A stretch of 64,000 bases of DNA from Apus apus (taxonomy: Eukaryota > Chordata > Aves > Apodiformes > Apodidae): assembly GCF_020740795.1 (NCBI RefSeq), contig NC_067301.1, forward strand, positions 5,146,001 to 5,210,000, in the 5' to 3' direction. The stretch's first letter is position 1, and every line of letters begins with the position of its first letter. Shown piece by piece: positions 33,269-39,143 of the stretch. The position numbers and the translations under genes were made by a program. Under the pieces are notes generated by a model, which was not told the DNA's origin, ran no database searches, and saw only the letters and a list, made by a program, of their open reading frames with translations.

Positions 33269-36200
33269 TCATATCTCTTCTACAAAACCCGGGAGAAACT
33301 CACTTTTCTGCATTGCTTTAACACCACAGTCTCCAAGCTGTGCTTTGTGTTCTAAACTGACACCTTTGTCACCTTTCGCCAGAGCTGGTGAGCCTGATGA
33401 GGTGAGGTTCTCGTGGATGCTCTGGATGCTCTGGTGGAAGCTTTGTTGAAAGCCATTCCTCTGCTCCTGGCTTGTGCCATGGCTGGCACTCTCAGGGGTC
33501 CAGGCTGGTCTGGAACTCCTCTGAGTGTGACTGTCAGGGCTCGGCTCCTCCCAGGGTGTCACAGGGCTCTGCTCAGGCAGTGCTGCTCCCACAGCACCTG
33601 CACTGTGCTGCTGACAGAGAGAAACACTCATTACAGCTTGTACTTGCACACAGCAGAGCCCTCTGCTCACAGGACAAAAAGTCAAGTTCTACATGTCTTA
33701 GCCCTTAGGGAATGGCTCATGATCTAGGGAGTCTCACCGTGCTAAAAGTTCACCTCCTTACTTGTTGGACAGATCCTTGGCTACTTTCCATCTTCTTTTT
33801 CTTGGAGATTGTTGGATTCCAGTGACACACCAGGCTGTCATTTTGGACACTGTAGTTCTTGTTACCAAGGAGCCAGTAAGTTTTCATTTTTCCTTTGCCC
33901 TGGGACAAGAAAAAGTAGAAGAGTTGTTTCATGGGATAGGAAGCAGAACACAGGATCACTATGGGCAGGGCTACCACCTGTACTGCTTTTTTTTATCTCT
34001 CCAAGGGGCTGCCATTTGGGGAAAGAGTTGTAATTTATATGCAGTTCGGGTGCTAATAATTCTTTCAGTTCAGAGAAAGGCCTTGCTGGTCACTGGCAGT
34101 GTCGCTCAGGGTTTAAAATCAGCCTTATAGCCATGTGTCTTTGTAACTGAATCCTGACACTTTCACCCAGATTCACCTGGTTCCATGCACCTGCAGACAT
34201 AACCCCTCTATTTCAAAGCACTTGTGCTGTGCTTTGGAGGAGTAATGTACAGCCACTTCCAACTGAATTAGCAAAAGAACCTTGTGGTCATGGTTCAAAA
34301 TTGACTTGCAATTCACAGAAGAGCAATGGCCAAATCTGTCGTATCTCCCTCTCTCATTAAGCACTTTTACTGTTGCAAAGCTACAGAAAAGCTGTTACCT
34401 TGATTTCAATTTCTCCTCTCAGTTCAATTTCATATGCATCATCTGTGAGAAGGGCATCATATGTAGCAGAACTGATGTGGATCTTCTGCGCTGGGATTCA
34501 GAACAGAGCATTAGGAAGGAATGATTCCCCTCTTCGCAGACACCACACACACCTCCTGCATTTATCAGCCTAGTGTTGTTAATTCCTCTTTGGAAGACGT
34601 GAGGTTGAGGGAGAAGCACAAAGAAGCAGAAGATGCCTTAAGCATTGGTTGAGGACTCTGTGACACTGTGCACAGATGTCAGCTAAAGCACAGAAGGACC
34701 TCAGGAGGTGAGCTGCCCCACCGAGGTGACTGTGCAGGGCTGCTCTGGGGGTCTGTACAGGAGAAGTAGGCTGTAGTGGCAGCAAAGGTAGCATGAAAGG
34801 CTGGACCAAGAAAACATGCACTACTCTCTTCTACATAGCCATGGTGTTTCTATCTAGTGCCTTTGTGTCTAAGTCCTTAGAATCAAACCCATCTTGTTCT
34901 GGTTGTCTTTTGCCACCCTCTTTCTCCTCCTGTTTCCAATCGTTTTCCAGAAATGGCATAAAGGAGGTGACTCACCCATGTGGACACACAAGAGTTTCTC
35001 TTGCCTATGTGATAGCTGGTATAGATACAGGGATAGTGGGGACTGCAGGTTCTGCATGTGCTGGTTCTTTGGCTCTACGGTAGTAAGTTGTCTAGCCTGG
35101 CTGTGTTGCAGAGAGTGCATGTAGAGGGCAGGTGTGAGTCTGGCTGGCAGGTCAGGAGCACAGGAGTTGTGCCCCAGCCACTTACGCAGGCTGGTGGACT
35201 CCATGCGGGAAGCTGTGTTCACTGTGTCCCCAAACAGGCAGTACCGGGGCATCTTGTACCCCACAACTCCAGCTACACAGGGTCCTGGGGAGATACAAGG
35301 CACAGGGACTGCAAGGAGAAACAAGTGCAGGAGGATGCCAAATGCAGACACTGTTGCTATTCACTTGGGGTCCTTTTCAGTATCTGAAGGGGCTACAGGA
35401 AAGCTGGGGAGGGACTGCTGGCAAGGGCTTGTAGTAAGAGGACAAGAGGGGATGGATTAAAACTGGAAGAGGGGAGATTTAGGCTGGACATTAGGAGGAA
35501 ATTCTTTAGTGTGAGGGTGGTGAGACACTGGAACAGGTTGCCCAGGGAAGCTGTGGCTGCCCCATCCCTGGCAGTGTTGAAGGGCAGGTTGGATGGGGCT
35601 TGGAGCAACCTGGTCTGATGGGAGGTGTCCCTGCCCATGCAGGGGGGGTTGGATCTAGACGGTCTTTGAGGTCCCTTCCAACCCAAACTATTCCATAATT
35701 CTATGATCCTCAGATTCCAGTGGGAATTGGGAACACTCAGTGTATCTAGGGCCTGGCTCCACAGTATTTACTTAAAATAAGTATTTACATATTTTACTTA
35801 AAGAAAGAAGTCATGATTTGAGTAGCTGTAGCTCATTGGTGCTGATATCAGGGGAGGATCCTGAGGTCCTGCAGGGAGTCAGTGGCTTGTACAGAAATGC
35901 AGAATTCTTTTCTCCTCACACAATTAGACTGTGTCCTGTTCTCTTTTCCCACGCCTCCCCCCCCAGCCCACGTACCTGTGTGTATCCCAGCCCGCAGCTG
36001 CAGCCTCCCCGTGGGCATGTGAGGGATCACAACCTGACGAACTGCTGCCACCAGGTCCAGAGACATCTTGGCAATCTCATCAGCATGTTTGGTGCCATTC
36101 CTCTCTGGCAGGCCACTCACTACCATGTAGGCATCACCAATGGTTTCCACCTGATGAGAAGGGGCACATGTCACTAAATGGCAGGCACCAAGCTTTTCTT

Positions 36201-39143: not shown

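What the first reader, a model, noticed from the sequence alone, without database searches (positions are those of the whole stretch)
33269..39143. A membrane guanylyl cyclase with a NIT-like ectodomain, apparently intact in a bird
The assembled protein has two membrane helices flanking about 250 helical extracellular residues, a signalling coiled coil and a complete class III guanylyl cyclase domain. It lacks the NPR ligand-binding and kinase-homology domains and the HNOB heme domain. The ectodomain pattern (LISLLQEER, then LILQIREAM, then [10 protein letters not shown]) resembles the NIT domain of bacterial nitrate sensors and some invertebrate cyclases. Mammals have no such cyclase that I know of. 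All metal, purine-selecting and catalytic residues are present, so this would be an additional cGMP-producing receptor of unknown ligand.
Basis: partly seen in the sequence, partly recalled or inferred. Interest (0 to 1): 0.88.

Follow-up and report, generated by a model that had tools for sequence, protein, structure and literature searches.

The report
Unclassified membrane guanylyl cyclase in bird
A bird chromosome carries an apparently intact gene for a membrane enzyme that should make the messenger cGMP, built like a sensor type known from invertebrates and reported lost in vertebrates, but what it senses is unknown.

Summary
Minus strand 39143-33269 holds seven exons with GT-AG introns and one open frame of 691 codons: TM1, a 256-residue ectodomain, TM2, a coiled coil and a complete receptor-type guanylyl cyclase domain (Pfam E 3.9e-70). 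Only 51 residues separate TM2 from that domain, so there is no kinase-homology domain (KHD). Catalytic motifs match NPR1. The domain groups with membrane, not soluble, cyclases (99/97) and shares intron positions with GUCY2C-like and retGC-like genes of this genome.

The NIT reading is plausible but unproven. Pfam reports no NIT, and whole-domain alignment to bacterial NITs is no better than chance. In favour are the two-TM layout and a helix-1 L....Q.ER motif at the bacterial distance from TM1. The second half of the nitrate pocket (G..R) appears lost.

A 2020 paper says vertebrates lost NIT domains (passages). This is either a diverged survivor of the NIT-cyclase line or another KHD-less class. 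It lies beside three natriuretic-peptide genes. I had no expression, orthologue or structure evidence.

The parts
38048..39143 (-). Exon with TM1, the whole ectodomain, TM2, coiled coil and start of the cyclase domain (residues 1-365 of the assembled frame; enters at a splice acceptor in mid-codon)
   Evidence: splice sites and frame; the 365-aa translation has one match at E <= 0.001 in the genome, itself
39050..39106 (-). TM1 (residues 13-31), preceded by RK..R
   Evidence: Kyte-Doolittle scan
38282..39049 (-). Ectodomain, residues 32-287: 8 Cys, 3 N-glycosylation sequons, no Arg after residue 183
   Evidence: no Pfam match reported
38930..38941 (-). QEER, residues 68-71: candidate counterpart of NIT helix-1 Q-x-E-R (L....Q.ER..........G)
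38573..38599 (-). IREAMLKAH, residues 182-190: aligns weakly with NIT helix-5 KExxGxER; K-E read as R-E, G-x-x-R lost (L-K-A-H)
   Evidence: block score within chance on its own
38225..38281 (-). TM2 (residues 288-306), followed by KRM
38087..38197 (-). Signalling helix / coiled coil (residues 316-352); matches only positions 180-216 of 216 of Pfam HNOBA
33867..38071 (-). Guanylate cyclase catalytic domain (residues 358-543) over six exons
36386..36520 (-). Exon 2 (metal Asp in FFSDIVGF)
   Evidence: residue role recalled
35976..36150 (-). Exon 3 (VETIGDAY: guanine-selecting Glu and second metal Asp)
   Evidence: residue roles recalled
35186..35284 (-). Exon 4 ([13 protein letters not shown]: purine-selecting Cys, catalytic Asn and Arg)
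   Evidence: residue roles recalled
34399..34490 (-). Exon 5
33762..33899 (-). Exon 6, end of cyclase domain
33269..33610 (-). Exon 7, C-terminal tail without a significant Pfam match, and stop
39749..39822 (-). Candidate first coding exon (MVRGYFAVWK...GGQER)
   Evidence: unproven, rival candidate 40928-40971 has the stronger donor

Best explanation
The locus is a working gene for a receptor-type membrane guanylyl cyclase with no kinase-homology domain, most likely descended from the animal NIT-cyclase line with a diverged sensor. Read from the sequence: two TMs around a 256-residue domain, a coiled coil and a complete catalytic domain. Inferred: both ends lie in the cytosol (positive residues flank the TMs on those sides) and the domain between is extracellular and helical. 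Inferred: the protein works as a homodimer; a stimulus on the ectodomain shifts TM2, the signalling helix passes the shift on, the cyclase pair closes over GTP and cGMP is made. Inferred: since the G-x-x-R half of the nitrate pocket seems gone, it is unlikely to sense nitrate as bacterial NITs do. It has another ligand, or answers indirectly to NO or redox state, perhaps through the cysteine-rich stretch at residues 98-120.
For: Open seven-exon frame with GT-AG sites. Cyclase domain E 3.9e-70; 62.5% identical to NPR1 over 216 columns, 64.3% to the retGC-like paralogue over 171; catalytic motifs identical to NPR1. Membrane-cyclase clade 99/97, end branch 0.31 against 0.24 for NPR1, which suggests lasting constraint. 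Intron positions shared with paralogues: four with the GUCY2C-like locus, three with the retGC-like locus. 51 residues between TM2 and the catalytic domain. NIT-type geometry: TM1 to the ER arginine is 40 residues, against 33-47 in the 21 of 31 bacterial loci where both could be placed (my subtraction). L....Q.ER at such a distance arose in 24 of 100000 shuffles. Two-block score at fixed positions: 14 of 3000 shuffles and 0 of 561 overlapping decoy windows. PMC7400543 (passages): animal NIT cyclases carry NIT between two TMs and a C-terminal cyclase, in many bilaterians including basal chordates.
Against: No NIT match reported by Pfam or in the genome. hhalign of the ectodomain against a 22-sequence bacterial NIT profile gives probability 0.5%. 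Local score reached by 13 of 136 decoys and 12 of 150 shuffles; global score by 8 of 136 and 17 of 150, and the reversed ectodomain scores higher globally (10.9 against 7.3). My own aligner: 21 of 136 and 32 of 200. Helix-1 block without position limits: 5 of 136 and 124 of 2000; helix-5 block: 105 of 136 and 1671 of 2000. The position windows were chosen after seeing the data. No animal NIT-cyclase sequence could be compared. No transcript, orthologue or predicted structure.
Confidence: 0.6

Rival explanations
1. A KHD-less membrane cyclase class whose ectodomain is not NIT: a vertebrate cyclase lost its ligand-binding and kinase-homology domains and gained an unrelated ectodomain, or kept one from another old class.
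For: No NIT profile match; profile alignment within chance. AU tests do not reject grouping with GUCY2C-like plus retGC-like (p 0.52), L116 (p 0.30), retGC-like alone (p 0.11) or NPR1 (p 0.08).
Against: TM-to-TM layout and helix-1 motif position fit NIT receptors. The best tree sets the gene outside the four other membrane-cyclase rows, but at support 47/28 only.
Confidence: 0.28
2. A recently silenced pseudogene that has not yet gathered stops.
For: No expression data; the first coding exon is not settled.
Against: 691 open codons, GT-AG sites and catalytic motifs kept. In the same genome a decayed cyclase (L123) shows stops at 35% identity.
Confidence: 0.07
3. A member of the soluble (HNOB heme) cyclase family, because Pfam HNOBA matches.
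For: HNOBA hit, E 7.3e-6.
Against: The hit covers only profile positions 180-216 of 216, the coiled coil. No HNOB match, two TMs, and membrane-cyclase clade at 99/97.
Confidence: 0.01

Closest known systems
Animal NIT-domain guanylyl cyclases (placozoans and other invertebrates, PMC7400543; Platynereis NIT-GC1/2, PMC10584369)
   Same: Two TMs around an extracellular domain, then a receptor-type cyclase domain
   Different: Ectodomain not recognised by PF08376; helix-5 G-x-x-R apparently missing; found in a vertebrate, where NIT domains were reported lost
Vertebrate membrane cyclases GC-A to GC-G
   Same: Catalytic domain 53.4%, 64.3% and 62.5% identical to the GUCY2C-like locus, retGC-like locus and NPR1; signalling helix; shared intron positions
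   Different: No kinase-homology domain, no Pfam-recognised ligand-binding ectodomain, an extra TM before the ectodomain
Bacterial NIT receptors and NasR (PDB 4akk)
   Same: TM1-to-ER distance and helix-1 Q-x-x-R
   Different: Intact G-x-x-R in the aligned bacterial set; ectodomain of the membrane-bound ones longer (265-303 residues in the same 21 loci, against 256)
Mnemiopsis ML02033a (PMC10073611, passages)
   Same: Cyclase set with the NIT group, its NIT-like region described as highly derived and of unknown function

Membership tests
Animal NIT-domain guanylyl cyclases | Domain flanked by two TMs, then C-terminal cyclase domain | tested here: met
Animal NIT-domain guanylyl cyclases | Ectodomain matches NIT (PF08376) | tested here: not met
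   no match reported for the protein or the genome
Animal NIT-domain guanylyl cyclases | Two conserved pocket arginines | tested here: inconclusive
   helix-1 Q-x-x-R kept; helix-5 G-x-x-R reads L-K-A-H in the best block and no Arg follows residue 183; the alignment itself is weak
Animal NIT-domain guanylyl cyclases | Cyclase domain clusters with other animal NIT cyclases | not testable with these tools
   I had no animal NIT-cyclase sequence to include
Vertebrate membrane cyclases GC-A to GC-G | Receptor-type cyclase catalytic domain | tested here: met
   99/97 clade, motifs
Vertebrate membrane cyclases GC-A to GC-G | Kinase-homology domain between TM and cyclase | tested here: not met
   51 residues between TM2 (ends 306) and cyclase domain (starts 358), same exon; that all seven classes have a KHD is recalled
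Soluble guanylyl cyclases | N-terminal HNOB heme domain | tested here: not met
   Pfam scan
Class III guanylyl cyclases | Two metal Asp, guanine-selecting Glu and Cys, catalytic Asn and Arg | tested here: met
   [29 protein letters not shown] identical to NPR1; residue roles recalled

The most novel reading that the evidence does not exclude
Birds keep a living descendant of the ancient animal NIT cyclases, an eighth vertebrate membrane-cyclase type whose nitrate pocket has been half dismantled and reused for another signal, inside the natriuretic-peptide gene cluster.
Probability: 0.5. Interest if true: 0.8.

Novelty: new variant of a known kind. Interest (0 to 1): 0.6.

Why it matters
The paper that described animal NIT cyclases says vertebrates lost NIT domains (PMC7400543, passages), and a paper on vertebrate visual cyclases counts seven characterised membrane subtypes (PMC10061024: abstract, passages, introduction and one results section). 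An intact KHD-less two-TM cyclase in a vertebrate would add a cGMP receptor with an unknown ligand and, if it is NIT-derived, correct that loss. In Platynereis NIT-GC1 carries NO feedback to photoreceptors (PMC10584369, read whole), so a vertebrate relative would open a direct test of membrane-cyclase signalling by NO or related cues.

Tried and rejected
Rejected: soluble cyclase (the HNOBA hit is the coiled coil only). Recent retrocopy or gene transfer from bacteria (multi-exon, introns shared with paralogues; the 51 prokaryotic relatives of the cyclase domain found are at most 47% identical). Recent duplicate (the exon's translation has no second genome match at E <= 0.001).

Led nowhere: PDB sequence search of the ectodomain gave one chance hit at E 0.39. 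NCBIfam gave weak partial hits only. Viral contigs gave no relative. NIT matches: 0 of 10 bacterial genomes, 1 of 292 in the phylum of G001, 30 of 297 in the phylum of G008. Of the 31 loci returned I kept 22 for the profile; 9 were dropped as truncated or read in the wrong frame by my script. The tree used 6 of the 51 prokaryotic loci and 7 of the 8 paralogous genes read (the decayed L123 left out). The gene's place among membrane cyclases is unresolved. The primary Platynereis paper is not held. Ten literature searches listed no report of a vertebrate NIT cyclase or of a cyclase at this locus; I saw listings, several capped at 10-15 of many, in an open-access library only. Database annotation of bird genomes was not seen.

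Full report
What is there. The minus strand from 39143 to 33269 carries seven exons joined by GT-AG introns, giving one open frame of 691 codons. Aligning that protein back to the window gives the same boundaries through the cyclase domain, a consistency check only. Scored with a recalled donor consensus, the six donors rank in the top 0.2 to 11% of GT sites on that strand of the window. The exon at 39143 begins at a splice acceptor inside a codon, so an upstream coding exon is missing. Two candidates are 39822-39749 and 40971-40928; neither is proven.

Anatomy. Hydropathy gives TM1 at residues 13-31 and TM2 at 288-306. Positive residues precede TM1 and follow TM2, which suggests that residues 32-287 lie outside. 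This stretch has 8 cysteines, five of them between residues 98 and 120, three N-glycosylation sequons, and no arginine after residue 183. Pfam places the coiled coil (HNOBA positions 180-216 of 216, E 7.3e-6) at 316-352 and the guanylate cyclase domain at 358-543, E 3.9e-70. The 51 residues between TM2 and that domain leave no room for a kinase-homology domain. The motifs [16 protein letters not shown] and [13 protein letters not shown] match NPR1; their roles in metal binding, guanine choice and catalysis are recalled.

Place among cyclases. The genome that holds the window (1.10 Gb, 110 contigs, window on C21) was searched for cyclase exons (counts are lower bounds). Eight other guanylyl-cyclase-like genes were read, one of them decayed; their class names are my recognition from recalled sequences. 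In a 15-row tree (the window, seven of these genes, NPR1 and six of 51 bacterial loci) the window gene falls with membrane cyclases (99/97), not with soluble ones. Its place inside that group is open. The best tree sets it outside NPR1, GUCY2C-like, retGC-like and L116 together at support 47/28, and AU tests do not reject grouping it with GUCY2C-like plus retGC-like (p 0.52), L116 (p 0.30), retGC-like alone (p 0.11) or NPR1 (p 0.08). Intron positions VYK|VETIG, H(T/S)G|P, LP| and K|G are shared with the GUCY2C-like locus. The first three are shared with the retGC-like locus, whose last exons my alignment misread. L116 shares the last three but has others of its own. The exon with the ectodomain has no second genome match at E <= 0.001.

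Is it NIT? Animal NIT cyclases have NIT between two TMs and a C-terminal cyclase (PMC7400543, passages), which is this layout. But PF08376 is not reported for the protein (filters drop most matches above E about 0.1) or the genome. I collected 31 bacterial NIT loci and used 22 for a profile. A six-sequence alignment from the same set finds NasR, PDB 4akk, at E 1.7e-32, so the set is sound. Against the profile the ectodomain is within chance. hhalign probability is 0.5%. Its local score is reached by 13 of 136 decoys and 12 of 150 shuffles, its global score by 8 of 136 and 17 of 150, and the reversed sequence does better globally. My own aligner gives 21 of 136 and 32 of 200.

In favour of NIT. 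The six sequences share 12 invariant columns. Reading outward from QEER by hand, and from the weak alignments, the window protein keeps seven (L5, Q10, E12, R13, G24, R79, E134), has R for K133, and loses K11, G14, G137 and R140. The distance from TM1 to the ER arginine is 40 residues, against 33-47 in the 21 of 31 loci where both could be placed. The other 10 lacked a landmark or had two candidate TMs, and in L086 a third hydrophobic call inside the domain was ignored (my subtraction). L....Q.ER within 33-42 residues of TM1 arose in 24 of 100000 shuffles, and in 3 of 100000 with the glycine added. At fixed positions the helix-1 block was reached by 10 of 3000 shuffles and 2 of 561 decoy windows, and the two-block score by 14 of 3000 and 0 of 561. 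The decoy windows overlap and the positions were set after seeing the data. Without position limits the helix-1 block is reached by 5 of 136 decoys and 124 of 2000 shuffles, and the helix-5 block shows no signal. I conclude that NIT descent is more likely than not and is not shown.

What it would sense. Helix 5 of NasR holds E175 and R176, predicted in the nitrate pocket (PMC7496416, passages). By order and spacing I take these to be the ER of KELAGQERA. PMC8199190 (passages) gives G-x-x-R as the nitrate motif, with one glycine a glutamine in NasR. The window protein keeps Q-x-x-R in helix 1 and reads L-K-A-H where G-x-x-R should be. Canonical nitrate sensing is therefore unlikely (inference from a weak alignment, helped by the lack of any later arginine). 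Platynereis NIT-GC1 carries an NO signal to photoreceptors (PMC10584369, read whole), so an NO-linked or redox role is possible; nothing here tests it.

Mechanism (inferred). A dimer whose ectodomain responds to a ligand or redox change; TM2 and the signalling helix pass the change on; the cyclase pair closes; cGMP rises.

Surroundings. On the same strand lie three natriuretic-peptide coding stretches (Pfam ANP, E 1.5e-14, 9.3e-9 and 1.2e-14, near 5.8, 12.0 and 17.7 kb), two trypsin-family stretches between 41998 and 43355, and a DUF2152 stretch at 51671-52564, E 8.2e-165. That DUF2152 is KIAA2013, its closeness to NPPA/NPPB in mammals, and the likeness to chicken chromosome 21 are recalled.

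Verdict. The gene is real and looks intact. It fits none of the seven vertebrate membrane-cyclase subtypes counted in PMC10061024, as far as I know their domain layouts. The label should stay 'NIT-like architecture' until a fold, or a tree with invertebrate NIT cyclases, is in hand.

Noticed in passing
window 5673-6065, 11635-12408, 17693-18109 (minus): Three natriuretic-peptide coding stretches in one cluster (Pfam ANP), the cyclase lying between them and the DUF2152 gene; ligand-type and cyclase genes are neighbours, though this cyclase lacks a natriuretic-peptide binding domain.
   Followed up: partly
L116 and L124 (G000 C36:55203500-55217500): Another membrane cyclase of unclear class, with a kinase-homology-like tail upstream (recognised by eye) and intron positions of its own (FFS|DIVG, DAY|MVV).
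   Followed up: partly
G000, whole genome: An NPR1 cyclase query gave 31 matches, all in loci already listed as other cyclases, so NPR1 and NPR2 were not found (counts are lower bounds, and assembly dropout is possible). Odd beside three natriuretic-peptide genes.
   Followed up: partly
L123 (G000 C1:27928500-27935500): Decayed cyclase exons with stops, resembling the beta-2-type soluble cyclase at L117.
   Followed up: no
window about 46900-47430: Long purine-rich GAAA-type simple-repeat tract that yields long spurious open frames on both strands.
   Followed up: no
window 41998-43355 (minus): Trypsin-family stretches directly upstream of the cyclase; by eye elastase-like, with a possible first part at 45380-45817 that had no Pfam match.
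   Followed up: partly
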